DNA of 64,000 bases from Ipomoea triloba (taxonomy: Eukaryota; Streptophyta; Magnoliopsida; Solanales; Convolvulaceae), in NCBI RefSeq assembly GCF_003576645.1, contig NC_044916.1, positions 18,921,892 through 18,985,891 on the forward strand. The letters are read 5' to 3'. Positions 1 through 27,692 of this stretch are shown one piece after another; within the stretch, counting starts at the first letter, position 1; each line of letters starts with the position of its first letter. The position numbers and the translations under genes were made by a program. The notes under the pieces are model-generated. The model was not told where the DNA came from. It saw only the letters and a program-made list of their open reading frames with translations, and did no database searches.

Positions 1-8
1 CTGATGTT

Positions 9-142
9 TTCGGCGTGTCGAGTTCCATTCTCGACACGTCGAAAACTTGCCGTAAGATGTTCTAAAAATTCTGATGATTCTCGACACGTCGAGAATGGGC
101 CGTAGATTTTTCATGAAAATCTGGCAGGCTCGACGCGTCGAG
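9..142 (+). promoter_or_regulatory. Palindrome cassette inside element A
   Basis: Four 14-bp palindrome-like sites start at 9, 30, 80 and 129, so the steps are 21, 50 and 49 bp. The fourth is a perfect CTCGACGCGTCGAG; the others have the core CACGT or its partner. The same sites with the same steps occur in the U3 of the LTRs at 4063-4167 and 5063-5147. I infer a duplicated enhancer or promoter module; binding by CGCG-box factors is possible but not shown. Confidence 0.6.
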
Positions 143-159
143 CCCCCGTAGTCAGACGT

Positions 160-840
160 TAACCGACGGTTTTTAAACCCAACTTTTTCCCCAAATTCTT
201 TATTTCTTCTTCTTCGAACAACAGTATTTCCACACGCGTTCTTCACCATTTCTTCATCATTTGGTCTCAAAATTCACTCATTTTCACTCCAAACTCTTCC
301 TAAAGCATCAAGGTATCATCCTTATTCATTTTCTCCATCAATTTCTTTAGTTTTGTTCTTAATTTCATAGTTTTTGGGCATGAAACCTAACCCACGAATT
401 TTGCCTAATTTTCGAATTTCTTGGATTAAATTGCTTTGGGTTAGTGTTTCTTTGATTGATTTTGCTTTATATGTTGCTCTTACATGTTCATAACACTCCA
501 TACTTGAATTTTGAATGAAAACTATAGTTTTACACTCTTTATTTGCTTATGTTTTCACATGTTAAATGCCCATAGTTTTCTTGCATTATTAGTGTTGTTT
601 TAGCTTGCTTTTGATATTGGTGTATTGTCTTGTTGGTGGTATCCATTGTTGAACACAAATGGGATGGATTGTCATGCTAATTAATTCAAATTCTCATGCT
701 TTAAATGGTGCACATGAAGTGTTCGACAAAATGCCTAAATGAGAATTTTTGAAGTCCTTGTATTGTTTGCTTGCTTTATGCTTTTAATTCTATAATTCTT
801 TGAACTTTTGCAAGTAATGTGTTTTGGTTTTGATTTGTAG
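160..840 (+). promoter_or_regulatory. Untranslated leader with a putative intron ahead of the 3' ORF
   Basis: After the palindrome cassette comes a pyrimidine-rich stretch that resembles a 5' leader. A good donor follows at about 310 (CAAG then GTATC). A T-rich stretch ends in TTTGTAG at 834-840, just before the ORF's ATG at 850. Element B keeps the same donor at 9438-9442 and the same acceptor context near 9970. The conserved pair suggests the downstream ORF is expressed from a spliced transcript. This is inference from motifs only. Confidence 0.45.
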
Positions 841-849
841 TTGCTAAAT

Positions 850-2055
850 ATGGCCCCGAAAACTAGAAATCCCAAGAGGAATAGGGGTGAATCATCCCAA
901 CAACCTCAAGAACAACCTCATGCGCCGCAATATGCAACTTTCAACACCCCTGGGGCTAGAGAAAGATACGAAGCATGTATTTCTAAGCGGCCAATCAAAC
1001 CAGAAAGGGGAATAGAAATAGTAGCACCCAACGCTTGGAATTGGGGGACTAGTTTCTTGGCTCAACCGGGTGATGCTTTTGACTCCATAGTTCGTGAATT
1101 CTATGCCAATGCCAAAGATGGGGTGGAGACACATCAATGCATTGTAAGGGGTGTCGCGGTCGATTTTTCTCCCGTAGCCATCAATGCCTACTATGGTACG
1201 ATCAACCATGGAGAATTTGACTACTACCATTGAGACTTGAGGCCGGGTAGAATAACTCAAGCAGATTTGGATAACATCGCACACTCTTTTCATCATGACG
1301 CTGAGTGGAATATTCGGAATGGAGTTGCGACCCACATGGATTATAGATTCTTTCTCGCACTGGATAGGGACATCATTGACTTCATTCGGGCAAAGCTCAT
1401 CCCCAATTCACATAGGGGAAATGTGAAAAGAGATCTGGTCTTCGTGACCTACTACATTAAAGAGCACAGAACCATTGATATAGGGAGGCTTATTTCTCGG
1501 AGCATTAGTGAAATTGCCCAAACCGAGGCAAAGACATGCTGCTATCTTGGCCACCCCTCCCTCATCACAGAGCTTTGCAAGCTTGCCGGAGTACCGATAA
1601 TAGAAAATCAAGAAGTTCGGCTACCACCTTAGCTTTATCTCTCCCAGCACCATATCCAGACCCGGTATGGCTAACGCCATGTTCCCGTTCCTGACCCCGA
1701 GGATGCAGAAAATGAGGACCAAGCTCATGACGAAGCAATGGAGGATCCTGCACCTGCCGCACACGCACCGAATCAATTCCCTCCCCAGTACAACATGGAG
1801 CAATTTTTTGCCAGACAGGAGGCGTTTATGACCCGGCAGGAGGAATTCATGACGAGACATGAGGGTTACATGACGAGGAATGATGACATCAATTGGTTTG
1901 TTGGTACGTCTGCGCACCAACATAATCTAGCAGCTCAAGGCTTTACCCCTCAGTACCCACCACCACCTCCATGGCTTCAGGATCCCCAATTCATCCCCCC
2001 ATACTACTCTGCTCAGTTCCCACCACCACCACCACCTGAAGGCGATCATCCATAG
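850..2055 (+). pseudogene. Env-position ORF with plant transposon-protein domain, broken by three stops
   Basis: One reading frame runs from the ATG at 850 to the TAG that ends at 2055, about 400 codons. It is cut by TGA at 1231, TAG at 1630 and TAA at 1672. The first two thirds resemble the 'putative plant transposon protein' domain (Transposase_32 type) found downstream of pol in Athila-like elements, with segments such as RYEACISKR, EFYANA and VRGVAVDFSP. The last third is rich in Gln and Pro, with Met-Thr-Arg repeats (EAFMTRQEEFMTRHEGYMTR) and proline runs. The molecular role of this family is not established; it sits where env-like genes lie in other retroelements. The TGA replaces what is probably a Trp codon. 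The protein is not expressible full length. Confidence 0.7.
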
Positions 2056-3747: not shown

Positions 3748-4759
3748 TGATATGACCTCATTTGTGCATAATTATCTAAGTGTTTTAGATCATCTTTGAA
3801 GCTTAAATGTATTAAATTGTCGCCTCGAATTCATGTTTCCTTGCTTTTTAGTGTAGACATGATTTGTTATTGAATTTGGTGCTTTTAAGGCGTTTGTTGG
3901 TATTTTGAAGCAATTTTAGATCAAACGCAAAGCAAAGGGATGATGGAAGGCATGATTGGGGTCAAAACGAACGAAGAATGCTGATTTTAGAGCTACACGC
4001 ATCCGGAATCCCGCCCGTTGCGACAAAACTCTTCAATGCGCGAAGAATTGAGCCAACACAGGCTCGACGCGTCGAGCTCCAGGCTCGACGTGTCGAGAGT
4101 CTACCGTATGAAATTTCGGAAAATCACTCAGGCTCGACGCGTCGAGCCCCTGTCTCGACGCGTCGAGAATTCAGCGCAGTACAGTGGCGGAAAAGCCTAT
4201 TTTGCCCCTATTTTTGATCCCACTATAAAAGGCTCTTTTTCCCAAAACCCTAAGGGACCCCAGGCTGCGTTTTTGAGAGGCAAAAAAGAGTGAGAGCAAG
4301 GTGTTGTCTCTTCCGTGGAGCGAAGGAGGGATCCACCATTCTTGGAGAAGAAGATAGTCATCTCAAGGAGATATCAAGGCTTTGGGAGGAAGAAGGAAAG
4401 CTTGGAAAGCTACATTTGGGAGAATTTCTTTCCCTTTCCTTTACTTGCTAGTCTTTGTAAACTCCTCGTTAACATTGAGCTTTAATTTTCTATCATAGCC
4501 ATGATTGGCTAAAGTATTTTGGGATTTTTGGGTGAAAGGTGTTGATGAATCCTTTGCCTTTGTTCTTCATGTTTAATGTTATATTTACATTTGGGGTTTA
4601 TGACTTGTTATGCAATTTGTGTTTAATGTTGATGATGCTTGTGATTAAGGATCCAATTGCTTGTTTCATTTGCCACATTTGTATCTTGATGGAAGTTAGG
4701 ATATAATCTAGGGCACACACAATTGCACCTTGCTTGCACCTCTTGGGAAAGAGTGTTTA
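3748..4759 (+). mobile_element. 3' LTR of element A, first part (split by element B)
   Basis: It begins TGATATGACC after a polypurine tract. It shares its layout with the LTR of element B: a leading segment with AGATCAAA and GCAAAG, then palindromes, a TATA box and an A-rich leader. It stops at 4759, where element B is inserted. The remainder lies at 17257-17615, so the whole LTR is about 1.37 kb, close to the 1364 bp of the B LTR. Position 4755-4759 is GTTTA, the target duplication made by B. Confidence 0.85.
4063..4230 (+). promoter_or_regulatory. U3 promoter of LTR A: four palindromes and TATA box
   Basis: CTCGACGCGTCGAG-type sites start at 4063, 4084, 4133 and 4154 (steps 21, 49, 21 bp). 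The second has GACGTGTC in the middle. TATAAAA follows at 4224-4230, about 57 bp after the last palindrome. Three sites carry the ACGCGT (CGCG-box) core. The function as an LTR promoter is inferred from position. Confidence 0.65.
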
Positions 4760-6123
4760 TGATATAATTTCAATTGTGCATATTTTTCTAATGATTTTTG
4801 AATCAACTTGTGAGCTTAGATGGATTAAATTGCTAGCTTCTATGCATTTTCCTTGCTTTCTCAATTAGATATGGTTTCATCCTTGATTTGAGTGTTTTAT
4901 GGTGTTTGTTAGTGTTTTGAAACCATTTTAGATCAAATGCAAAGCAAGGGAACATTTAAGGGCATGTTTGGGAGTCAAAATGGATGAAGAATGCTTACAT
5001 TGAGGCCGCAACGCGTCCAGGATCAAATTAGACATGTCCAGAATTTTGAGCCAAGGTCAGGGCTCGACGCGTCGAGAATGTGCTGTAGCAATTTCTGAAA
5101 AAATAACCGAGGCTCGACGCGTCGAGCCCCATTCTCGACGCGTCGAGAATCCTGTGACAACACAAAAATCTGCTACACGGAATTGCCTATTTTGCCCCTA
5201 TTTTTGGCTCCCACTATATAAAGCTCATTTTCCCAAAACCCTAGAGCTAACCTGTATTTTTGGAGGCAAGAGGAGTGAGAGTAAAGGGTGTCTTCCTCCC
5301 CAAGGAGGCAAGGAGGGATCCACCACTTTTGGAAAAGATATTCACCATCAAGGAGCTACAAGAGCTTTGGAGGAACAAGGAGAGGCTAGGAAGACTACAT
5401 TCGGGAGAATCTCTTCCCCTTTTCCTTTACTTTGATAGCTTTTGTAAACTCTTTAATATTTTTGCTTTAAATTCTATACTAGCCATGAGTGGCTAAATCT
5501 TATTATGGATTTTTGGGTGATAGGTGTTTATGAATCCTATTTGCCTTGTTCTTCATGATTAATGATATGTTTATATTTGGGTTTTATACTTATGATGCAA
5601 TTGTGATTTCTATTGTGATGCTTGTGATTAAAGGCCTAAATTACTTGTATCTTGCTATAGTTTTGTCTTGATGGGAGTTAGGGCATAGACTAGAGCACTC
5701 ACTTTTGCACTTGACTTTTGCACCTTGGGATAGGGCAAACTTGTTAAGGGATTTTATCTAGGTTGCTTGTTCTTGATCAGTTCTTTATTGTGGGTTTGAA
5801 TTATGGGAGTAATTCCTTCCCCTTTGTGAATGCAATCATCCTCTTTTGTTAGAACCCGAATTACATATCTCACCTTAGTATGGCATTAGGAGATTAAACA
5901 CTTAAACCCGGAAATCCCATCTCTTCCTCTATTTGTTTCCATCATTTAAGCTTTCTTATTTCTTGTTTATTACAATATATCCTATCGTTCGAACACCAAT
6001 TTCGTTAGGATTAGCTTCACAAGAATATGTTAGTAACTAGTGTTCGGTACGCCCCGCTTCCCAGTGGATCGATACCCCGGAATACTCCGGGTATTTGAAT
6101 TGTTATAAAATATGCTGCAATCA
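4760..6123 (+). repeat. 5' LTR of element B
   Basis: It begins TGATATAATT and ends GCTGCAATCA, and is 1364 bp long. It is followed after three bases by the primer binding site. The end carries GATCGATACCCCGG and CTCCGGGTATTT, typical of Athila-like LTR ends. The 3' copy at 15941-17251 is about 53 bp shorter because of a deletion close to its start. Confidence 0.88.
5063..5222 (+). promoter_or_regulatory. U3 promoter of 5' LTR B: three palindromes and TATA box
   Basis: Perfect CTCGACGCGTCGAG sites start at 5063, 5113 and 5134 (steps 50 and 21 bp). A TATATAAA box is at 5215-5222. In the 3' LTR the same sites are at 16192, 16242 and 16263, with TATATAAA at 16343-16350; two of those three palindromes carry point changes while the spacing is unchanged. 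Confidence 0.65.
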
Positions 6124-6126
6124 AAT

Positions 6127-6144
6127 TGGCGCCGTTGCCGGGGA
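6127..6144 (+). promoter_or_regulatory. Primer binding site of element B (tRNA-Asp type)
   Basis: TGGCGCCGTTGCCGGGGA lies three bases after the 5' LTR. This is the usual PBS of plant Athila/Tat-like elements, complementary to the 3' end of a tRNA-Asp. It fixes the element's orientation and LTR boundary. Confidence 0.9.
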
Positions 6145-6277
6145 AGTGGCGTTTTAGTATTGAGATTAGTGAAGTTTTATTCTGGGAGTCTAATCCTTTT
6201 TTTTTCTTTTATTTCTACTTACCCGTAACAAATTTTTCTTTGTTTAGTTGTGATCTCGTGTTCTAGGTACTTGTTGC

Positions 6278-8872
6278 ATGCAAACACAGTCATCGGGGAA
6301 AAAAGGATTGCTACCTTTGGACCTTGAGATTGAAAAGAGAGCAAAGTACTTTAGAAAGCAAAGAAAGATGGCACAAGCTCAAGGAAATATCAATGTAAAT
6401 CTTAATGGAGGTGGAAATGGAAATGGCAATGGAAATGGAAAAGGTGATGGGAATGGAGTTAATCAACCCCCACCGGTTAGGAGAGCTATGTCCGATTATA
6501 TTGCACCCGATTTGGAAGAACGTGATAGTATCAACATTCCGGGTGTTGAGGCCAACAATTTCGAAATCAATCCGGCGATAATACAAATGGTTGCATCGGA
6601 TCAATTCGGAGGATCACCCATGGAAGATCCAAATGCTCATATTACAAAATTCCTCCGAATTTGTAGTACTTTTAAGATGAACGGAGTTCCTGCTGAAGCA
6701 ATCAAACTCCGACTCTTTCCATTTTCAGTGAGGGATAAAGCTCACGGTTGGCTCATCTCCTTTCCGGCTAATTATTTTGATAGTTGGGACCAGCTTCACC
6801 GGGAATTCTTGAAGAAGTTCTACCCAATCTCAAAGACTCAAAGGATGAGAAGAGCAATCCAAAACTTCAAGCAATTGCCGAATGAGTCCTTAGCCGAGTC
6901 ATGGGAAAGATTTAAAGATTTAAGAAGACAATGTCCACACCATGGTATACAAAGTTGGGATCTAATGATGGCCTTCTATGAGGGATTATTTGAAACTTCA
7001 AGGACTTTGGTGGATGCATCTTCGGGAGGTTCATTCAAGGTCTTGGAACCTATTCAAGCCGAAGAATTGTTAGAAAAAATTGCAATGAACGGTTCTACTT
7101 GGTACTCCAATAGATCTTCACAAAGATTGGGAGGAGGTATTCGTGAAGTGGAGCAAATATCCGCTTTATCGGCTAAAGTGGATAATGTTGCAACAATGGT
7201 GCAAAAGCTAGCTCAAATCACTCTTCAAAAGTGAAATGTGAGCTATGTTTCTACTCCTTCTCCCTCAAGACAAGTGATGATTTGTGATCTTTGCGGTGGA
7301 GGGCACAATTTGGGTGAATGCCTTAATGAAGACACCAATTCTCAATCTTCCGTGGAACATATTGACTTGGTGGGATATAATAGGCCACAACAATCTTTTC
7401 AACCTCAAGGAGCCTATAATCCTAATACCTCAAGGAATCATCCCGGTTTTTCTTGGAGCAACCCAATGGGGGTGGCAAATCCCCAACATTTTGGTAATAG
7501 AGGATCTCCACCGGGGTTTCAAGGGCAATCAAATTATAGAGGAGCCCCACCACAACAATTTAGGCCAACTCAAGGATTTCAACCCCAAGTTCCGACTATT
7601 CAACCAAGTCCACCACTACCTACTTTGGAAGCTCCACCTCCACCAAATTGGGAAGCTATGATGCAAATGATGCTTAAATCTCAATTGCAAAGTGAGGAGA
7701 GATACAAACAAATGTCCGAAAAGCTAGATCAATTGAGTGCTCACAACAAGATGCTAGAAAGACAAATTGCAAATCAAGCTTCTACTTCTACCACCAAAGT
7801 AATGGGGAAGTTGCCCGCTTGTCCCGAGAATCTAAGAGAGCATGTCAATGCCAATGTAACAAGAAGTGGCAAGAAACTTGAAGAACCAACTCTTCCGATT
7901 GACAAACCAAGGCCAAGCAAAATCGTTGATGTTGAAATTGAAGAGAGACTTGAGGAAGAAGAGGCTAACCATCCTGTTTTGAATGCGAGCCCTCAAAGTC
8001 ACGAAAAATATGAAAAAGAGAAGCCCGAGAGAAAGTATGTGCCACCACTTCCATTCCCTCAAAAATTTCAAAAGCAAGCCAAAGATAGTAGATGGAAAAA
8101 ATTCTTGGATATTGTTGAAAATTTGAAAGTCTCTATCCCGTTGCTCGATTTGCTCACCCAAACACCTTCTTATGAGAAGTTTTTAAGGGAGATTATATCT
8201 AAAAAGAGAAAGTTTGGTGATCAAGAAATGATTGCAATGACACAAGAGTACCGGGCCTTAACATGTGAAGAGGGAAGGTTTCCAACAAAGCATAGAGATC
8301 CGGGAAGATTTACAATTCCATGTGTTATTGGTGGCTCCACAATCAATAGATCACTTTGTGATTTAGGAGCAAGTGTTAATGTCATGCCTTTATCTCTTTG
8401 CAAGAAGCTCAATTTGGGAGAGCCACAACCGGTCGAATGCACACTTCAATTTGCCGACCAGTCAACCAAAAATCCTATTGGAATTCTTGAGGATGTTCCC
8501 GTTCGTGTTGACAAGTATTTTGTGCCTTGTGACTTCGTGGTAATGGATATTCGAGAAGATCCCTACACTCCAATCATTTTAGGGAGACCTTTCTTGGCCA
8601 CAACGGGAGCAATAATTGATGCACGGAAAGGATCAATGATCTTTGATTTTGGAGAAGAGAAAGTGTCGTTCAATGTTCTTGAAGATCCTAATTCTCGTGT
8701 TATTGAAAGGTGTTATAGGGCCGATGTTATGGGTGGCAAGACTCGTGATGGAGATGCTAATTTTACACATGTGGAGAAAGTCGACAAAGGATGTCTTTTG
8801 GGATGCAAAGCTTGTGTTGGGAACTTCAATGAGGCTAGTGATGGTGGTAGCCTCAAGGATCAACCCGGATGA
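6278..8872 (+). pseudogene. Gag-protease polyprotein of element B, one internal stop
   Basis: Two ORFs in the same frame (6278-7234 and 7238-8872) are separated by one TGA at 7232-7234. Together they encode about 864 residues. The N-terminal part has an Asn-Gly repeat, then the retrotransposon capsid domain (region with PMEDPNAHITKFLRI, GWLISFP, WERFKDLRRQCP). A zinc knuckle of the form CX2CX3HX4C is at nucleotides 7284-7321. A Pro/Gln-rich linker and a charged segment follow. The aspartic protease comes last, with DLGAS at 8360-8374 and the flap-side ILGRPFL. Protease is normally followed by reverse transcriptase, but here the frame ends at 8872 and the post-pol region follows at once. The start is the ATG in GCATGCAAACACAG, about 130 bp after the PBS. 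Gag coats the RNA in virus-like particles; the protease cuts the polyprotein. Confidence 0.85.
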
Positions 8873-9188: not shown

Positions 9189-9273
9189 TTCGATGCGTCG
9201 AGAACCATTCTCGACGCGTCGAAGATCTGCCGAATGAATTTTACGAAATACCTGTAGGGCTCGACGCGTCGAG
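9189..9273 (+). promoter_or_regulatory. Palindrome cassette inside element B
   Basis: Sites start at 9189, 9210 and 9260 (steps 21 and 50 bp), with sequences TTCGATGCGTCGAG, CTCGACGCGTCGAA and CTCGACGCGTCGAG. The spacer words (CTGCCG, AATTTTACGAAAT) resemble those in the LTR cassettes. The equivalent in element A is at 9-142. Confidence 0.6.
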
Positions 9274-9289: not shown

Positions 9290-10066
9290 TTGACCGAGTG
9301 TTTTAGACCCTTTTCCCCCATAAATTTTTCATTTGGTTTTCTTCGAACAGCAGCTCCTACACGCGTTTTCTTTGCATTATCTTCATCTTTTGCTCTCAAA
9401 ACACACTCACATTCACTCCAACTCTATTCCTAAGGCTTCAAGGTAGCATGCTCACCCTTTTTCTCCATCAGTTTCTCTTATTTTTGTTCAAAATTTTCAT
9501 AGTTTTTGGGCATGAAACCTAACCCAAGAATTTTGGCTAATTTTCGAATTTCTTGGATTAAAATGCTTTGGGTTAGTGTTTCTTTGTTTGATTTTGTTCT
9601 AAGTGTTGCTCTTACATGTTCATATTACATTACACTTGAATTTCAAATGATGAAAATAGATTCACTCTCTTTACTTGCTTATGAATTTCCATGCTCAATA
9701 CTATAGTTTTGTTTCATGATTAGTGTAGGTTTATGTTGCAAAATGCTCATGATTGATTGTTTTTGGGGTGTTGATATTTGTTGTGTTGTAATGGGTTGAA
9801 TGGGGACACCAATTGCACTAAACTTCTTTGTTCACATTCTTGCACACAAGGTGTTTGATGAAATGCTCCAATAAAGTTCTTGAAATTTCTTGCATCGTTT
9901 GCTTGCATATCGTTCTATGTTTCACATTAATCAATGCTTGCAAGTATATATTGTCCTCACTTTATGATATTGTAGATAAGAAATGTTTCCAAGAGCTACG
10001 CTCCCAAACAAAAGCCAAAGAGGAGAGTCATAACAACAAACTCAAGAGCCTCCTCCTCTTATTTTC
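9290..10066 (+). other. Leader with putative intron; 3' ORF deleted in element B
   Basis: The stretch matches 160-840 of element A: pyrimidine-rich leader, donor CAAGGTAGC at 9438, acceptor-like TTGTAG near 9975. Only a short piece of coding sequence follows before the join to the ORF's last proline codons at about 10067 (compare 2027). Roughly 1.1 kb of the ORF seen in A is missing, so no protein is encoded. Confidence 0.6.
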
Positions 10067-10639: not shown

Positions 10640-13600
10640 TGTAACACCCCAATTTTCACATCTAGGATTTATTACAAAATCCCTAATAATACATTGCGGA
10701 AGCATCTAACAAGCAGAAAACTGGGTGTTACCGCCACGTTTAGGTATCTCTCCTATACCCAAACGCTAAGGCTAAACTTACAACATCAAATAACCACATC
10801 AATATTCCAACTTAATACATATGGAAATAATTCTTCCAGGGTGTCTATTCTAGGATAGAGTAGACCTCAACCTCAACTTCCATCCTATTCAGAGCTCACG
10901 CTAGACAATATCTGTTAAAAGAAAAACACATTGAAGTGTAGTTAGCATGACGGCTAAGTAAGAGAATCCATGGTCACACAAGATTCAACAAAGGGTTTTA
11001 AAACACGTCTCTTGAAACAAAATCATTTCCTTCTCAGGGTCGTTACAGAGTAACCCTTTTCTCATCTTTAAAACCTCCTTAGTTTCATATTACCAAGCGT
11101 GAGGCCTTTGGAGCATTCTCATAACTCCCTCTCTGACCACTTGGACCATCGAACTCGGGTTCAGTGGTCATCACCCGGTCTAACACTGATCTCATAATTC
11201 CTAGCTGGCCTAGCCAAGTCCATTAAAACAACATCTACCCGGACTTCTGGAGTAACTATACTTTAAGTGTGCACACCCCCATAGGAATACCTCATCCTAC
11301 GAGTTATATAATACCCGGCGAATAGACTTCGCCCTGCAGTATGAACTAGTCATACAATATAACACAACGACCACTGGGCAATGGCACTTAAAGCCACCCG
11401 TGGGTCAATCAAGGTCCTCCTCAACTTACTTTAGAAACTAAGGTTTTGAAAACATGTTCCTCCCTTCAGTTTTCTTTCTCAAATCATTTCTTTTGGGCAT
11501 ATTTCTCATTCGAGCCCAATACTTGAAATTGGCTACCTCATTAGCCCCTAAAGGATTTTCAAAATACTTTCAGTACCCGCAGGCTTTTCAAACATCATTT
11601 TCTCATCATTCTCACGTAAGGTACACACATTAAAAGTGGTGTTTTCCTCAAAAATAAGGTTTTGACAACCAAAATAGCATACGTTCTTCAACGTAAGTTT
11701 TTATAAACATTTTGGATATACTTCACGTCTCATACTTGAAATCCATCCACCTAGGTATACATTTATATATTCTACTAACTATCCATTCTCAATACTATTA
11801 TTATAATAGTACGAACCCATAGTCAACCATTTATGAATCAACCGATTCATAGCACCATTAATATCAACATCCTTAACCTTGTTCCTTATCATGAATTTCA
11901 GTCCCTATTACAATCCAATCCTCATCGGTAATCCATAATCATGGTTTCCACCATTAACTAATAATAGATAGTTATTCTTGCCCTTATCGTCCTCAACGAC
12001 TTCCACCATCATCAACACCATTAGATCATCATATTCATATCTCTAACCCTCAAATCATATTCACCATTTAATTTATTCATCCAGTCATTCAACATTAATA
12101 ACTATCATCAGTCCTTAATCACTATAATTAAAGCTTAATTACCTCCTGAACTCCACTGTTAATCCATATTTTATCTATTTCGTGCCCTCATCATCAACAG
12201 CAACCTAACATCAACAACTTTAGGCCTCTTTTTGACACATAGTTGGATCTCACGTCCGCTCCATTGGACTTACGGTGGACGCACGTCCAATCCCCGTGTC
12301 CGCACCAATATAAATTTCTAAGAGGTAAAGTCATTGCCTAACCATAATCCAAAATCATTCAACAACTATTTCCTCAATAATATCACAATATCATCACTAC
12401 TCAAAATTCCTTTAAATCATAACTTATTCACTAATAGAGAGATTTCCAACTCTCATCATCATAATCATAATAATCCTATCATTAACAATAATCAAGGCTT
12501 ACACCATTTAATCTGTCATAGCTTATATCTATAACCTTCATATCCATAATCACCAATTAATCATAGCTTATGTCTATAACCTTCATATCCATAATCACCA
12601 ATTAATCATAGCTTATGTCTATAACCTTCATATCCATAATCACCAATTAATCATAGCTTATGTCTATAACCTTCATATCCATAATCACCAATTAATCATA
12701 GCTTATGTCTATAACCTTCATATCCATAATCACCAATTAATCATAGCTTATGTCTATAACCTTCATATCCATAATCACCAATTAATCATAGCTTATATCT
12801 ATAACCTTCATATCCATAATCACCAATTAATCATAGCTTATGTCTATAACCTTCATATCCATAATCACCAATTAATCATAGCTTATGTCTATAACCTTCA
12901 TATCCATAATCACCAATTAATCATAGCTTATGTCTATAACCTTCATATCCATAATCACCAATTAATCATAGCTTATGTCTATAACCTTCATATCCATAAT
13001 CACCAATTAATCATAGCTTATGTCTATAACCTTCATATCCATAATCACCAATTAATCATAGCTTATGTCTATAACCTTCATATCCATAATCACCAATTAA
13101 TCATAGCTTATGTCTATAACCTTCATATCCATAATCACCAATTAATCATAGCTTATGTCTATAACCTTCATATCCATAATCACCAATTAATCATAGCTTA
13201 TGTCTATAACCTTCATATCCATAATCACCAATTAATCATAGCTTATGTCTATAACCTTCATATCCATAATCACCAATTAATCATAGCTTATGTCTATAAC
13301 CTTCATATCCATAATCACCAATTAATCATAGCTTATGTCTATAACCTTCATATCCATAATCACCAATTAATCATAGCTTATGTCTATAACCTTCATATCC
13401 ATGATAATCTCTTAGGATCATTACAACCCTATCATCTCCATAATTATTATGAGTACACATATATAAGTATATCCATATTTTTCAACACAAGGCTCATAAA
13501 TCCCTATTTCAACTATCAATCATCAAATCTTAAGTGACAAAACCAACTTAAGGGATTTCTTACCTTCCAAGTAGCTTTTAAAACCGTAGGAATCATTGTG

Positions 13601-14759
13601 ATCCTTTCCTCCAAATTTCCACCAAAGATCCTAAGTAATTTCCACCATAATAACAATATTTTCAAGAATTCTTAGCTTAAAACTAAGTTCTAGGAAAGGA
13701 TTCTACTCTTCTTAACCGAATAAAATCAAAATGTTACCTAGTATGGAAGAACTTGTGTACGAAAATGGCTATGGAGCTCCTTGAACACAAATATGAAGAT
13801 GAAATCTTTCTCTCTCTTTCCTCTCAATATTTCGGCCAAGATGGGAATGAATGGGAAATGGAAGATCAAAGCTCTATTTATAGCAACTTGTAAGATAGGG
13901 ATGAAGAAGCTTGGAGAGTAAGTTTATATGTTATATCTTGTAAGATAAGGAAGATGATGCTTGGAGATCAAGTCTCAATTTGGAGCTTGGAGAGTAAGTT
14001 TCTATCAAGACTTATCCTATAATCTTCCTTGCAAGACTTATTCCACAATCCATCCTAATTAATTTATTATTACCATATGGTAAATAATTGTGACACTTGT
14101 CACAATTTCCATGGTAAATCTTGAAGGATAAGTTTGCCTTGCCAGTTTGGGATTAAATCATATAAAAGTTCGATGGAATATAATTTAGGGACAATAGGGT
14201 GGCTGCCTAGGTTCTAGAAGAGACAAAATAAAATTAAAACATAGATGATATCAGTCAAATAATTGGTATCAAATTGAAGAATACATGTGCTGGCAGAAAG
14301 AAATTGGCAGAACACTGGATCCGGATTAAAAATATTATTGGAAGTATTTGGTAAGGTATTTTGATACCATTTTCTTCAAATATGTAGTTAAGCAAGTCTA
14401 GAACCTACATATAAAATTTCATAGAAATCTAAGGAGTAGAAGTATGGTTTTTGAATTTCTTTCCAAAACTAGCCCAGAGAGAAAAATTCTGGACAGCACA
14501 CTGCCAAGAGCAAAAACGTAATTTTCTGTGTTTACTCAAATATCCAAATGACCAAAACTTTTTAAGGATATCAAGTACTATAGGTTGGGGTTCTAAAATA
14601 AAAATTTCAGGTAAAACGGAGTTCGGGAAGTATGTTTACCAAATAAATCTTTCGGACTGAGCCGAGTTGAAATTTTCTGAAAAAAAAGAATAGTTAGAAA
14701 CATTTTTGGCTAAAAAACATTTTGTAACAAAAATGGTGAATAAATTTCGGGGTGTCACA
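10640..14759 (-). mobile_element. 4.1-kb solo LTR inserted in element B
   Basis: The ends are TGTAACACCCC and GGGGTGTCACA, and GCTAG is duplicated at 10635-10639 and 14760-14764. Removing the insert restores a sequence matching 2580-2600 of element A. No PBS, PPT or coding region is visible inside, so a solo LTR is the simplest reading. On the minus strand CTATAAATAGAG lies near 13880-13870 followed by a leader-like stretch, which favours minus orientation. The ends resemble the LTRs at 40107-42229 and 44399-45500. A non-coding internal element with ends of this type is an alternative. Confidence 0.78.
12516..13401. repeat. 45-bp tandem repeat, about 20 copies, inside the solo LTR
   Basis: The unit starts TCATAGCTTATGTCTATAAC and continues through CTTCATATCCATAATCACC to AATTAA. 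Copies are almost identical; a few have TATATCT in place of TATGTCT. No spacers occur between units. The array lies downstream of the putative minus-strand TATA box, so it would be transcribed as part of R-U5. Confidence 0.95.
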
Positions 14760-14764
14760 GCTAG

Positions 14765-15930: not shown

Positions 15931-17251
15931 TGGGGGAGTTTGATATAATCTCATTTGTTTGCTAGCTTCTATGCATTTTCCTTGCTTTCTCAATTAGATA
16001 TGGTTTCATCCTTGATTTGAGTGTTTTATGGTGTTTGTTAGTGTTTTGAAACCATGTTAGATCAAATGCAAAGCAAGGGAACATTTAAAGGCATGTTTGG
16101 GAGTCAAAATGGATGAAGAATGCTTACATTGAGGCCGCAACGCGTCCAGGATCAAATTAGACATGTCCAGAATTTTGAGCCAAGGTCAGGGTTCGACGCG
16201 TTGAGAATGTGCCGTAGCAATTTCTGAAAAAATACCCGAGGCTCTACGCGTCGAGCCCCATTCTCGACGCGTCGAGAATCTTGTGACAGCACAAAAATCT
16301 ACTGCGCGGAATTGCCCATTTGCCCCTGTTTTTGGCTCCCACTATATAAAGCTCATTTTCCCAAAACCCTAAAGCTAACCTGTATTTTTGGAGGCAAGAG
16401 GAGTGAGAGTAAAGGGTGTCTTCCTCTCCAAGGAGGCAAGGAGGGATCCACCACTTTTGGAAAAGATATTCACCATCAAGGAGCTACAAGAGCTTTGGAG
16501 GAACAAGAAGAGGCTAGGAAGACTACATTCGGGAGAATCTCTTCCCCTTTTCCTTTACTTTGATAGCTTTTGTAAACTCTTTAATATTTTTGCTTTAAAT
16601 TCTATACTAGCCATGAGTGGCTAAATCTTATTATGGATTTTTGGGTGATAGGTGTTTATGAATCCTATTTGCCTTGTTCTTCATGATTAATGATATGTTT
16701 ATATTTGGGTTTTATACTTATGATGCAATTGTGATTTCTATTGTGATGCTTGTGATTAAAGGCCTAAATTACTTGTATCTTGCTATAGTTGTGTCTTGAT
16801 GGGAGTTAGGGAATAGACTAGAGCACTCACTTTTGCACTTAACTTTTGCATCTTGGGATAGGGCAAACTTGTTAAGGGATTTTATCTAGGTTGCTTGTTC
16901 TTGATTAATTCTTTATTGTGGGTTTGAATTATGGGAGTAATTCCTTCCCCTTTGTGAATGCAATCATCCTCTTTTGTTAGAACCCGAATTACATATCTCA
17001 CCTTAGTATGGCATTAGGAGATTAAACACTTAAACCCGGAAATCCCATCTCTTCCTCTATTTGTTTCCATCATTTAAGCTTTCTTATTTCTCGTTTATTA
17101 CAATATATCCTATCGTTCAAACACCAATTTCGTTAGGATTAGCTTCACAAGAATATGTTAGTAACTAGTGTTCGGTACGCCCCGCTTCCCTGTGGATCGA
17201 TACCCCGGAATACTCCGGGTATTTGAATTGTTATAAAATATGCTGCAATCA
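15931..17251 (+). repeat. PPT and 3' LTR of element B
   Basis: TGGGGGAGTT at 15931-15940 abuts the LTR start TGATATAATC. The LTR ends GCTGCAATCA at 17251 and is followed by the target duplication GTTTA. It is nearly identical to 4760-6123 except for the loss of about 55 bp after its first 17 bases. Confidence 0.87.
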
Positions 17252-17615
17252 GTTTAGTATTGTTGTTTATGATGCTTGTTCTATCCCTTGTCTTGTAGGA
17301 GTTACGGGAGTAATTCCCTTCTTTAAGTGCATCTAAACGCTTGTCTAACCCAAATTTGATATTTCACCTTAGCTTGGCATTAGGAGACTAGACACCTAAA
17401 CCCGGAAATCCCTTTTCTCCTCCTATTTGTTTTCATCAACTACGTTGTCTTTATTCTCGTTTAGTATTGTTTTTGCAATCGTCCAAACACCATTTTCGTT
17501 GGATTAGCTTCATAAGAATACATTAGTAACTAGTGTTTGGTGCGCCCCGCTTCCCTGTGGATCGATACCCCGGAATACTCCGGGTATTTGTTTGTGTTAA
17601 AATATGCTGCAATCA
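17252..17615 (+). mobile_element. 3' LTR of element A, second part
   Basis: The sequence resumes LTR A after the duplicated GTTTA and ends GCTGCAATCA. It carries GATCGATACCCCGG and CTCCGGGTATTT as in LTR B but differs at many positions, so it is the older, distinct LTR. The outer target duplication of A would be AGTAG at 17616-17620; its partner is outside the window. Confidence 0.8.
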
Positions 17616-24200: not shown

Positions 24201-25299
24201 TACCCTTCACCGCAGTTGCTAGATGAAAGTATCTGGTATTTCTGTCCCCAGACCTGATCCACTCCTCCCTTGATCTTTAGAACCATAATAGTTCCTCTTG
24301 TTGTAGCGTAGCTTCCAGTTCACTTCTCAGTTTCCTGTCCAACCTTAGCAGATTCTGGCTTACATGTTGAGCAAAACTCTTTTGCACTCCGTTTATTCTG
24401 GCCAGTAATTGCTTCTTCCTGTGAAAAACGTTTCCAAAAACATTTTTATTCCAGGCCACTAATGCCACAGTCATTTCTGATTTATTTTCTTCTATGCTCT
24501 TCTCCGGCTTCCAGGTTTGTTGGACACACCTCAAAAAATCTTTGTGTGTTGTCCATATAAAGTTGAATCTGAATTTTCTTACCCTGTTAATGGTCACATT
24601 GGGGTTATTTGTTATAAGTAGTGGCACATGATCTGAATTAATGATCGGGAGATGCTCTATCTTCGTATTTGGAAATCTCAGTTTCCAATCCTCATTGCCT
24701 AGTGCTCTGTCCAATCTCGCTGCTTTGAACTGTGCTGTGTTCTCTCCCGGCATCCAAGTAAACTTTGAGCCCTCGTATCCTAGATCCACTAGCCCTTCTT
24801 TAAAGATCCATTCTACAAAGTCAGCACTTCTGGCGGCATTAAAACACACTAGATTACTCACTTCTTCCCTACTTGTGACCGCATTGAAGTCCCCACAGAT
24901 TAACCAACACTGTTGTGATCTAAAGTTCGCAGCAGATAAGTCGGCGAATAATCTCCTTCGAAGCGATTGATTCGGACTGCTATACACCACTATTAGCATC
25001 CATTTTGGTAGCAGACCTTCTTGAACCTGCAAATTAACGAATTGAGGGTGAGTATTTATAACTTCTATCTTTACTGAGGACTTCCACAGGATCCAAATTC
25101 CCACGGAAAATCCCACAGCCTCAACCCGAACCCATTCATAAAAACCCAACTTATTACAAATAGAGTTAGCTTGTGAGCTCGATACTTTCGGCTCAATCGA
25201 ACAAATCACATCGGGCACATGGTCCCGACAAAATTGCATTAGGGTGCGCCGGAATTCATTGGAGGCGGCACCCTGACAGTTCCATGATAGACATATCAT
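21268..25299 (-). pseudogene. LINE ORF2: endonuclease, reverse transcriptase, zf-RVT, RNase H (broken)
   Basis: ORF2 makes the nick and copies the LINE RNA at the target. Endonuclease-like sequence is at 25299-24277 (start MICLSWNCQGA; CGDFNAV; final SDHVPLL). The reverse transcriptase follows, with APGPDGFTVGFY, LRPIGLCNISYK and the catalytic FFADD near 23250. A CCHC-type zf-RVT segment (CWLCRGHAEDIDHALRKC) is at about 22080-22000. RNase H with its acidic residues (NFDGS, QAEAWGL, LEADS, VADQLA) is at 21700-21290. In-frame stops occur at 24277-24279 (TAA), 24073-24075 (TAG) and 23389-23391 (TAG in place of Gln in GIRQGDP). Another stop is at about 22365, and frame changes occur near 22560, 22130 and 21900. 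Domain order and RNase H fit plant L1 elements. Confidence 0.88.
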
Positions 25300-25952
25300 T
25301 AAAAACAAAATCCCACAGCCTTAACCCGAACCCATTCATAAAAACCCAACTTATTACAAATAGAGTTAGCTTGTGAGCTCGATACTTTCGGCTCAATCGA
25401 ACAAATCACATCGGGCACATGGTCCCGACAAAATTGCATTAGGGTGCGCCGGAATTGCACATGGTCCCGACAAAATTGCATTAGGGTGCGCCGGAATTCA
25501 TTGGAGGCGGCACCCTGACAGTTCCATGATAGACATATCATTAAAAACAAAATCCCACAGCCTTAACCCGAACCCATTCATAAAAACCCAACTTATTACA
25601 AATAGAGTTAGCTTGTGAGCTCGATACTTTCGGCTCAATCGAACAAATCACATCGGGCACATGGTCCCGACAAAATTGCATTAGGGTGCGCCGGAATTCA
25701 TTGGAGGCGGCACCCTGACAGTTCCATGATAGACATATCATTAAAAACAAAATCCCACAGCCTTAACCCGAACCCATTCATAAAAACCCAACTTATTACA
25801 AATAGAGTTAGCTTGTGAGCTCGATACTTTCGGCTCAATCGAACAAATCACATCGGGCACATGGTCCCGACAAAATTGCATTAGGGTGCGCCGGAATTCA
25901 TTGGAGGCGGCACCCTGACAGTTCCATGATAGACATATCATTAAAAACAAAA
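25109..25952 (-). repeat. 200-bp tandem repeat of the LINE ORF2 start, four units
   Basis: Units begin at 25109, 25309, 25551 and 25751. Each contains the first 200 nt of ORF2, including the ATG and the UAAUG junction. The second unit is 242 bp because it holds an extra 42-bp duplication of its own (about 25457-25498). The three extra units share changes relative to the native one (for example Lys for Glu in VEAVGF). Since 200 is not a multiple of three, each extra unit encodes only a 60-80 residue peptide ending ...VGFCF. Confidence 0.93.
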
Positions 25953-27692
25953 TAAGCAAAGACAGAAGTGCTCAGGAGCACTGAAGACCCTCCATCGCCG
26001 CAACCCCAGGGTCGAATTGACCATCCTCATCGACCGTTTCATCGACAGGCACCTGTGGTGTGTTTTCAAATATCGTGGGGATATCAGGGGGTCACCAAGG
26101 AGTTCATAATCCATATCCATACGGCGGGACGACTCAGGTCTGTCATTCAAATGGTGAACCACAGAGCTAGAGATTCGTCCCCCGCGATTAGAACCTCTTA
26201 CCACAATGTGCTCAGATTTTGCTACGGCCCTTCTGGGTGGTGCCCCTCTTCCGCCTCTGCCCCTGGCAGTCCCTCTGTTCCTGGCGTACGATTGGTCCCC
26301 TTTGGCACCTCTTCCCTTTGTAGTCGTCTGAACCCCGGTTTGATGGGGGTTCTCAGTCTGCCTTCTTGGCAGGTTATGTGTTTGGTTGGTACGGATATTC
26401 GGTAGTGATGGTGGGACATTCTGGACCATTGGTGTGGTGGTCCTCTCCTCTGGTTGTAGTCCATTGAAGTTCTCCTCCAAACCTTCTAATGCAGCATAGC
26501 GAGACTGTAACTGAGGGTCTCCTGCTACCGCTGTGTGTAATTGAGCGTGATTTCTATTATTCGTGGCCGGAGCCTGAGCTCCACCCCTGCGATAACCCTT
26601 CTTTTCTTTCCTTGCAACTAACATCCACTCTCCGAAATTCTTACTAAAATCTCTTACTGGTTTTCTGGCTTGATGTGCTGCCCGTCCCCTGCTTTCTGTC
26701 TGGGGTATGTCTTTCTGCGCTTGTTCCGTATGCTCCTCTGCGGCGTTGCCTTCCTCGTTCTGGTCTTGAGTCCCACAATGACCCTGTTTGTGGCGATACA
26801 TGCTGCATTTGAAGCAGACCATCTGGATGCCTTCGTATTCAATAGGTACTATTTCACCCTCAATCATGAACTTGGACAGTAGCGGCCTAGAAAGATCAAG
26901 TTCGACACATACCCTTGCAAACTTTCTAATCGATACCAGACTGGTTGTGGTGTCCATTTTCACCGGCCGGCTTATGTTCTGACCAATTTTCCTCAAGAAT
27001 TCCTCTTCAAAGTATTCAATTGGGAGAGCGGGAAATCTTACCCATACCAGAAGTTTATCCAATTTGTTAGTGTGCAGGTAGAAGTTGGGTCGCCATTCTT
27101 GGACCGTCAGATAATGCCCAAGGATGATCCACGACCCTTCATATTTGGCGAATTCGTAGTCGCTCAGGGCGTCGAATCTTGCCAAGAAGAAATCTTGGTC
27201 TATCGCGATTAGGTCGAAATTGGCTTCCGGTTTCCAGAGCTTCTGGAGTCTCTGCAATAGGTATGCGTACCCTACTTTCCGACCCAAAACCTTGAGTATT
27301 AGCGTTCTTCTCCACGGGAGCCTTAATCGTTCCTTCTCCTCTTTAGTGACCTTAATTACCGGGCAATTAGGGTCCGAATCCCCTTGTTCCATTGATTCTT
27401 CGTCTGAAACCTCCACATCGTCCACTCTTGTGACGTTTTCTTTCCTTCCCCATGCGCTGCTCGGTGTTTCGACCGGTGTTCGCCACTGCGCGGAATCCGA
27501 CGACATAAAGCCGGCCGACGCTGGAACTCCTTGAACCCCGTCGTCAAATGACCCTGACCTTGCCTGCTCCGCCTGGGCTCGGTTTCTTTTCGTTTTCTTG
27601 GTGCTTCTTTTCAGTAGATCCTCATCTTCTGGTGACCGAGCGGTCGCCGCCGATGAGCTTTCCTCCGACAACGTTTCCGTCAACTGCTCCAT
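25941..27692 (-). CDS. LINE ORF1: DUF4283/zinc-knuckle nucleic-acid-binding protein
   Basis: The uninterrupted ORF encodes 583 residues. Residues about 130-300 form a DUF4283-like domain (LPWRRTLILKVLGRKVGYAYL, RPNFYLHTNKLDKLLVWVRF in shortened form). A zinc knuckle follows (CFKCSMYRHKQGHC, CX2CX4HX4C-like with the His at RHKQG). The rest is basic, Gln- and Gly/Arg-rich (GRGAKGDQ, ARGRGGRGAPPRR). Plant L1 ORF1 proteins of this build bind the LINE RNA in the RNP. The start is the ATG at 27692, close to the element's 5' end. The TAA stop overlaps the ORF2 ATG (TAATG). The ORF1 frame is intact although ORF2 is dead. Confidence 0.82.
   Translation of the reverse strand: MEQLTETLSEESSSAATARSPEDEDLLKRSTKKTKRNRAQAEQARSGSFDDGVQGVPASAGFMSSDSAQWRTPVETPSSAWGRKENVTRVDDVEVSDEESMEQGDSDPNCPVIKVTKEEKERLRLPWRRTLILKVLGRKVGYAYLLQRLQKLWKPEANFDLIAIDQDFFLARFDALSDYEFAKYEGSWIILGHYLTVQEWRPNFYLHTNKLDKLLVWVRFPALPIEYFEEEFLRKIGQNISRPVKMDTTTSLVSIRKFARVCVELDLSRPLLSKFMIEGEIVPIEYEGIQMVCFKCSMYRHKQGHCGTQDQNEEGNAAEEHTEQAQKDIPQTESRGRAAHQARKPVRDFSKNFGEWMLVARKEKKGYRRGGAQAPATNNRNHAQLHTAVAGDPQLQSRYAALEGLEENFNGLQPEERTTTPMVQNVPPSLPNIRTNQTHNLPRRQTENPHQTGVQTTTKGRGAKGDQSYARNRGTARGRGGRGAPPRRAVAKSEHIVVRGSNRGGRISSSVVHHLNDRPESSRRMDMDYELLGDPLISPRYLKTHHRCLSMKRSMRMVNSTLGLRRWRVFSAPEHFCLCLFCF

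What the first reader, a model, noticed from the sequence alone, without database searches (positions are those of the whole stretch)
4063..5147. Palindrome array with fixed 21- and 49/50-bp steps in LTR promoters
Seen: 14-bp sites close to CTCGACGCGTCGAG start at 4063/4084/4133/4154 (LTR A), 5063/5113/5134 (5' LTR B) and 16192/16242/16263 (3' LTR B). The steps are always 21 or 49-50 bp and a TATA box follows. Steps stay fixed even where the palindromes have mutated. Known: ACGCGT is a CGCG-box of the type bound by plant CAMTA factors. Inference: a phased array that binds a dimeric factor, perhaps making the LTR respond to calcium or stress. Each site also carries three CpGs, so it may be a methylation sensor.
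Basis: partly seen in the sequence, partly recalled or inferred. Interest (0 to 1): 0.75.

Follow-up and report, generated by a model that had tools for sequence, protein, structure and literature searches.

The report
Shared palindrome array at two retrotransposon promoters
A plant jumping gene carries the same evenly spaced palindromic DNA sites in front of its main genes and in front of an extra gene, which suggests that one paired DNA-binding protein controls both together.

Summary
The reported sites are real and at the stated positions. In the 462 Mb host genome (an Ipomoea, inferred) the 12-bp core occurs 1372 times against 12 for the reversed control. Of the 30 best aORF loci, 29 carry sites upstream. 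The 21-bp step holds across unrelated spacers; the longer step varies by subfamily (mostly 49-52). Some arrays carry a second version, TCGCCGCGGCGA, changed on both halves at once; of 113 otherwise perfect cores none is an A/G or C/T hybrid. In the ten elements typed, LTR and internal arrays mostly share a version. I read this as one regulatory module for a symmetric double-strand DNA binder, used at two promoters of an Athila-like element. Binding and transcription are inferred; CAMTA is not established. Closest precedent: palindromic boxes of copia Sireviruses, also in LTRs and before ENV; here site sequence, fixed spacing and switch differ.

The parts
9..142 (+). Internal array of element A: palindromes at 9, 30, 80, 129 (steps 21, 50, 49)
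313..840 (+). Predicted 5'UTR intron of the additional ORF, element A (AAG|GT ... TTGTAG|)
   Evidence: sequence; AAGGTA in 30 of 30 aORF loci; letters checked
850..2055 (+). Additional ORF (aORF) of element A, broken: open pieces 841-1233 and 1234-1632 match PF20167 (the first below cut-off), 1675-2055 matches no family; searched apart
3748..4759 (+). 3' LTR of element A, first part (interrupted by element B; its end is at 17257-17615)
4063..4167 (+). LTR A array: palindromes at 4063, 4084, 4133, 4154 (steps 21, 49, 21)
4223..4232 (+). TATA box of LTR A (CTATAAAAGG), 55 bp after the last palindrome
4760..6123 (+). 5' LTR of element B; target site duplication GTTTA at 4755-4759 and 17252-17256
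5063..5147 (+). LTR B 5' array: palindromes at 5063, 5113, 5134 (steps 50, 21)
5214..5223 (+). TATA box of LTR B 5' (CTATATAAAG)
6127..6143 (+). Primer binding site-like TGGCGCCGTTGCCGGGG right after the 5' LTR (Athila-type, recalled)
   Evidence: sequence
6254..8872 (+). gag (PF03732) and a protease-like region (Asp_protease_2 below cut-off) of element B; the internal array follows 317 bp later, leaving no room for RT or integrase
9189..9273 (+). Internal array of element B: palindromes at 9189, 9210, 9260 (steps 21, 50)
9443..9975 (+). Predicted 5'UTR intron before the truncated aORF of element B (ATG 9983; DNA match to A resumes only at 10066, beyond the aORF's coding part)
15941..17251 (+). 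3' LTR of element B (97.9% to the 5' LTR over 1294 columns)
16192..16276 (+). LTR B 3' array: palindromes at 16192, 16242, 16263, two of them decayed

Best explanation
The palindromes form one cis-regulatory module used twice by an Athila-like Ty3/gypsy retrotransposon family: upstream of the TATA box in the LTR (gag-pol and genomic RNA) and upstream of the family's sense 3' additional gene, which looks like a complete gene with its own promoter, 5'UTR and intron. A factor that binds double-stranded DNA symmetrically, most likely as a homodimer, recognises the 12-bp dyad TCGACGCGTCGA or its two-sided variant TCGCCGCGGCGA. Pairs of dyads two helical turns apart (21 bp) are bound on the same face, so both promoters fire together. 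Shown here: sites, spacing, place before both genes, symmetric switch, and a shared version in most of the few elements typed. Inferred: binding, the factor, splicing, transcription, lineage.
For: Core 1372 exact copies vs 12 for the reversed control; variant 298 vs 2. Of the 30 best aORF loci (46 matches in all), 29 have at least one site within 1.5 kb upstream, 1 has sites downstream, and Markov controls gave 0-1 of 30. AAGGTA 470-588 nt before the gene start in 30 of 30; GTAG or GCAG next to the start in 29 of 30 (no control run). CTATAWA 53-66 bp after the last core in 15 of 21 sampled clusters. Step 21 in 45 of 50 listed A/T pairs (of 370) and 43 of 50 listed C/G pairs (of 83). 31 distinct spacers in 15 clusters share step 21. 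Cores perfect at the other 10 positions: A/T 94, C/G 17, T/A 1, A/A 1 of 113. L056 (LTR and internal all C/G) against L062 (both all A/T) with homologous LTR flanks. Changes are strand-symmetric. LTR and internal long spacers are similar (six pairs, shuffle p 2e-4 to 0.035).
Against: No binding, expression or 5'-end data. Arrays are related by descent: the 30 aORF loci fall into 5 clusters at 85%. The absence of hybrids could mean that the variant arose once and spread by duplication; with up to 2 other mismatches, 3 of 181 sites are A/G hybrids. L026 has no array. Six of 21 sampled clusters lack CTATAWA and 5 of 21 gave no LTR A/B match of 60 bp. Internal promoters show at best a weak TATA-like TTTAAA (by eye). 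The shared-version test rests on 10 elements, five typed wholly or partly by position only; L044 has a mixed internal array with C/G sites at the LTR position; L042, L049 and L064 have internal C/G pairs but no other C/G pair within 10 kb's listing, so their LTRs give no support. Single copies decay (element B).
Confidence: 0.62

Rival explanations
1. Host CAMTA factors (CGCG-box binders) drive the array, making it calcium or stress responsive.
For: ACGCGT is in every intact A/T core, and the switched variant CCGCGG still fits VCGCGB (consensus recalled, papers listed).
Against: Constraint spans 12 bp and the long spacer also carries further motifs. Central G6/C7 changes (11 of 27 CpG transitions) are commoner than C5/G8 changes (3 of 27) in the same CGCG. 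The query that would have counted TCGTCGCGACGA and other variants genome-wide did not complete.
Confidence: 0.15
2. A protein made by the element, perhaps the aORF product, binds the palindromes at both promoters (activation or anti-silencing, VANC-like), and protein and motif evolve together.
For: LTR and internal arrays share the switched version in L056 by letters and in L048 and L051 by position; 29 of 30 aORF loci have the array; the sunflower Athila PF20167 ORF has a predicted NLS (PMC11728184, passages); VANC motifs evolve as tandem repeats with their protein (PMC5735166, passages).
Against: AlphaFold model weak (mean pLDDT 52.7) with no Foldseek match at E 0.001; only a sub-threshold HTH_38 hint in 2 of 4 proteins. 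Mixed arrays occur within one promoter, unlike a clean one-protein-one-motif pairing.
Confidence: 0.12
3. The palindromes act as RNA or single-strand hairpins in the genomic RNA, or attract small RNAs, and are not protein sites on double-stranded DNA.
For: Each site can form a 5-bp stem with a CGCG loop; the two-sided switch would also preserve a stem. Sirevirus palindromes are reported as small-RNA targets (Bousios 2016, recalled, not seen).
Against: No sense-strand bias towards G-U pairs: outer T..G 14 vs C..A 19 (p 0.49), core C>T 13 vs G>A 14. A fixed 21-bp step over unrelated spacers is not expected of hairpins.
Confidence: 0.08
4. The arrays are non-functional tandem repeats carried along by descent, with even spacing from duplication.
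For: Some loci show plain tandem amplification (L031, L014, L038). In element B the sites have decayed since insertion.
Against: Between families palindrome columns outlast flanks, 41/42 vs 222/324, despite CpG decay; 15 spacer clusters share one step; symmetric switch.
Confidence: 0.08

Closest known systems
Sirevirus repeated-motif (RM) boxes, Darzentas et al. 2010 (PMC2829016; passages and section 9 read)
   Same: CpG-rich palindromic boxes in many copies upstream of the LTR TATA box and again upstream of the ENV gene; proposed as support for an internal promoter.
   Different: Ty1/copia, boxes with a CGG-CCG core (all but Tnd-1 of the 13, by the paper); no fixed step is given in what I read. 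Here an Athila-like element (inferred), core TCGACGCGTCGA, 21-bp step kept over many spacers, two-sided switch, and a recurrent predicted 5'UTR intron.
Athila sense 3' aORF with PF20167 (sunflower Athila 14 ORF(+), PMC11728184, passages)
   Same: Same domain, same sense orientation, 3' of gag-pol.
   Different: No promoter array or 5'UTR intron is described in the passages I saw. A review (PMC7264820, passages) says that env-like genes are driven by the 5' LTR.
VANDAL/VANC anti-silencing motifs (PMC5735166, passages)
   Same: Short motif arrays in non-coding parts of a TE that evolve in concert and change version.
   Different: VANDAL is a DNA transposon (recalled); motif YAGTATTAY is not palindromic; the binder is element-encoded and tested by EMSA and ChIP. 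Here no binder is known.
Maize Grande gene23 own promoter (described in PMC7264820, passages)
   Same: An accessory gene in the 3' internal region with its own promoter.
   Different: Antisense gene in another lineage; no shared LTR and internal array mentioned in the passages seen.

Membership tests
Athila-lineage Ty3/gypsy element | Sense 3' additional ORF of the PF20167 type | tested here: met
   PF20167 4e-16 (59.9 bits, cut-off 45) for one piece and 7.7e-10 (39.4 bits, below cut-off) for another; third piece no family
Athila-lineage Ty3/gypsy element | RT/integrase phylogeny and domain order | not tested
   Element B holds gag and protease-like only before the internal array; element A is cut by the window edge
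Athila-lineage Ty3/gypsy element | Retrotrans_gag and PBS of Athila type | tested here: inconclusive
   PF03732 6.6e-24 is not lineage-specific; PBS letters seen but the Athila match is recalled
Sirevirus RM boxes | Ty1/copia Sirevirus host element | tested here: inconclusive
   PF20167 aORF and gag point to Athila, but no RT was available to settle the superfamily
Sirevirus RM boxes | CGG-CCG core palindrome | tested here: not met
   Core TCGACGCGTCGA / TCGCCGCGGCGA against Table 3 of PMC2829016
Sirevirus RM boxes | Boxes before the LTR TATA and before the 3' extra gene | tested here: met
   15 of 21 sampled clusters with TATA; 29 of 30 aORF loci
CAMTA CGCG-box | VCGCGB hexamer in the site | tested here: met
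   ACGCGT in A/T and CCGCGG in C/G cores; consensus recalled
CAMTA CGCG-box | Binding by a CAMTA protein | not testable with these tools
   no ChIP or DAP-seq data
VANC-type self-targeting system | Element-encoded protein binds the motif | not testable with these tools
   structure model too weak

The most novel reading that the evidence does not exclude
The element encodes (in the PF20167 additional gene) its own symmetric DNA-binding regulator, which recognises the palindromes at the LTR and at its own promoter. Protein and dyad co-evolve, so that both promoters switch site version together: a self-regulating, possibly anti-silencing circuit in an LTR retrotransposon.
Probability: 0.12. Interest if true: 0.85.

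Novelty: new variant of a known kind. Interest (0 to 1): 0.58.

Why it matters
How plant retrotransposons express the gene between pol and the 3' LTR is unsettled; a review assigns env-like genes to the 5' LTR promoter. A matched promoter array plus a predicted 5'UTR intron in front of that gene makes the internal-promoter hypothesis directly testable in an element family with many copies. A similar layout in copia Sireviruses suggests that dual palindromic arrays may be a recurrent solution. The two-sided site switch gives a natural series of variants for finding the factor.

Tried and rejected
Led nowhere: viral-contig scan for the paired palindrome (0); protein-level search for LTR arrays read as ORF (none); literature search for the 14-mer (0 papers); AlphaFold and Foldseek of the aORF protein. 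An RNA-hairpin reading was tested by strand bias and found unsupported. A chance reading is rejected. The first scan used only the A/T motif and missed C/G sites with T..A flanks; the rescan with both is, where the same 29 of 30 loci have two sites or more.

Never answered despite repeats (not completed): DNA search with window 1-850 (asked three times) and 3900-4330 (asked once); count of A/T pairs with steps 44-74; count of TCGNCGCGNCGA. So the genome-wide spectrum of the long step and the genome-wide frequency of one-sided hybrids are unknown.

Dropped before counts: L001-L004 (they duplicate L005); L013, L018, L019, L067 (orientation unclear); one search kept all held loci and removed repeats by 52-base context. 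Of 46 aORF matches only the best 30 became loci and were counted. Fetched regions L055-L067 (several overlap L025-L054: L055 L046, L056 L047, L057 L048, L058 L049, L059 L050, L060 L051, L061 L052, L062 L053) were used for typing and are not in the 29-of-30 count. The 21 clusters are those of the 50 sites listed, out of 1372, all from the first 17 Mb of contig C1.

Full report
What is there. Element B (5' LTR 4760-6123, 3' LTR 15941-17251, duplication GTTTA on both sides) is inserted in the 3' LTR of element A (3748-4759, continuing at 17257-17615). Both LTRs carry the array upstream of a TATA box. Two further arrays with the same steps lie inside the elements, at 9-142 (A) and 9189-9273 (B). 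In both, the array is followed by about 170 bp, a 5' splice site, a predicted intron of about 530 nt and, 7-9 nt after the 3' splice site, an ATG. In A this opens an extra gene; two of its three open pieces match PF20167, one of them below the cut-off. In B the gene is truncated.

Host. Of 38 relatives of the gene found with a second, longer copy (L028), 37 are from Ipomoea (batatas, trifida, nil) and one from Handroanthus; the first search gave three, all I. batatas. The host genome is 462 Mb in 17 contigs. I infer an Ipomoea; no call names it. The lineage (Athila-like) rests on PF20167, gag and the PBS; no RT or integrase was available in the window copies.

Genome-wide test. The core TCGACGCGTCGA occurs 1372 times exactly, against 12 for the pattern read backwards (that control holds fewer CpGs). 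The 50 sites listed there form 21 clusters in the first 17 Mb of contig C1; all 21 were fetched (L005-L024 and L068). Sixteen of 21 match LTR A or B over 60 bp or more; the five without are L012, L013, L018, L019, L024 (L024 lies where an LTR should begin). In 15 of 21 a CTATAWA box starts 53-66 bp after the last core.

The extra gene. A protein search gave 46 places. Of the 30 best, 29 have at least one palindrome (3 mismatches or fewer) in the 1.5 kb upstream, mostly 500-870 bp from the start. One of 30 has sites downstream, and first-order Markov controls gave 0 or 1 of 30. The exception is L026. All 30 have AAGGTA 470-588 nt before the gene start, and 29 of 30 have a GTAG or GCAG next to the start; L054 matches only from residue 23 (no control was run for the splice sites). 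A spliced subgenomic RNA from the LTR would need no local 5' splice site, so this anatomy favours a local start (inference). The 30 loci form 5 clusters at 85% identity, so they are not 30 independent cases.

Spacing. Exact A/T pairs with steps 13-43 number 370 (control 0); of the 50 listed, 45 have step 21, three 20 and two 42. C/G pairs number 83 (control 0); of the 50 listed, 43 have step 21, five 40, one 42 and one 20. Among 95 distinct spacers in held loci and window, 31 give step 21 and fall into 15 sequence clusters; 41 give 49-52; 23 give other values. So 21 bp is the constant. The long step differs by subfamily, for example 60 in the TTCGACGCGTCGAA LTRs. The long spacer often carries a second box: GCCGWA-type in 27 of 50 distinct spacers (shuffle mean 1.6) or CAGAATG in 11 of 50 (0.24).

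Two-sided switch. Some arrays read TCGCCGCGGCGA, 298 exact copies against 2 in the control. Of 113 context-unique sites perfect at the other ten positions, the pair is A/T in 94, C/G in 17, T/A in 1 and A/A in 1; no A/G or C/T hybrid was seen. Allowing two other mismatches, 3 of 181 are A/G hybrids and 13 more are of other kinds than A/T or C/G. One-sided changes elsewhere in the core are common: of 32 single changes 27 are CpG transitions. Some internal arrays mix both versions at fixed steps (C C, 50 bp, A A in L042 and L044), others are all C (L047, L048, L051, L064) or all A (L034-L039, L053). The variant may have arisen once and spread, so the missing hybrids are suggestive, not proof.

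LTR and internal arrays compared. L056 (the region of aORF locus L047) and L062 (of L053) are two shortened elements with homologous LTR flanks. In L056 all LTR and internal sites are C/G, in L062 all are A/T. By letters, window A, window B and L061 are A/A. L065 and L066 have A/T internal arrays by letters and A/T pairs at the LTR position. L048 and L051 have C/G internal arrays by letters and further C/G pairs 3.6-8.5 kb away, where LTRs should be. L044 has a mixed internal array and C/G sites 6.5 kb upstream. So, of ten elements typed, 3 of 3 all-C internal arrays go with C/G sites at the LTR position, 6 of 6 all-A with A/T, and one is mixed. Three more loci with internal C/G pairs (L042, L049, L064) show no other C/G pair within 10 kb's listing, which runs in order through their contigs; their LTR arrays are missing, decayed or of the other version, and could not be typed. 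Related elements and position-only typing limit the claim, and A/T sites in the LTRs of L048, L051 and L044 were not fully excluded.

Conservation and decay. Between families the palindromes outlast their flanks. Within element B, 3 of 42 palindrome bases differ between the two LTRs against 26 mismatches in 1294 columns. So any selection acts on the copies that multiply, not on each old insertion.

Double-stranded or RNA. Changes show no sense-strand bias: outer T..G 14, C..A 19; core C>T 13, G>A 14 (136 sites). This fits a double-stranded target and gives no support to an RNA hairpin that tolerates G-U.

Who binds. Unknown. CAMTA fits the central hexamer, yet the 12-bp conservation and the tolerant centre argue for something that reads more than CGCG. 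The aORF protein is a candidate on genetic grounds only: the model is weak, no fold match, and an HTH_38 hint below cut-off appears in 2 of 4 proteins.

Known context. Sirevirus RM boxes show a like layout in copia elements (PMC2829016), so the layout is known in kind. In ten literature searches (an open-licence library only, mostly listings) I found no report of such arrays in Athila elements or of this motif.

Noticed in passing
window 12516-13402: A 45-bp unit repeated 19.7 times at 99% makes a 341-aa repetitive ORF; it lies in a stretch of element B (about 10644-14760) that has no counterpart in element A.
   Followed up: no
window 5007-5020 and 16136-16149: A further near-palindrome CGCAACGCGTCCAG 56 bp upstream of the LTR B arrays; L008 has a more symmetric CTGGACGCGTCCGG upstream of its array, perhaps an older decayed site class.
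   Followed up: partly
spacers of the array, e.g. window 5077-5112, 44-79; L009 1553-1588: Second conserved box between palindromes: GCCGWA-type in 27 of 50 distinct spacers or CAGAATG (in some as inverted repeat GGCAGAATGCC) in 11 of 50.
   Followed up: partly
L031: Sixteen palindromes, most at 51/52-bp steps, upstream of one aORF, with spacers in alternating orientation: a local amplification of the module.
   Followed up: no
window about 375-470 and 9500-9600: A stretch inside the predicted 5'UTR intron looks more conserved between elements than the promoter (alignment, by eye), possibly an enhancing intron or captured host sequence.
   Followed up: no
proteins P0005, P0020, P0029-P0031, P0036, P0038: Database proteins named as P450, snRNP, tRNA ligase, kinase or kinesin carry the PF20167 domain: probably gene models fused to this retrotransposon.
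   Followed up: no
window 25107-25953: Direct repeats: aligned stretches of 205, 447 and 689 bp at 99.5, 90.4 and 87.7% identity.
   Followed up: no
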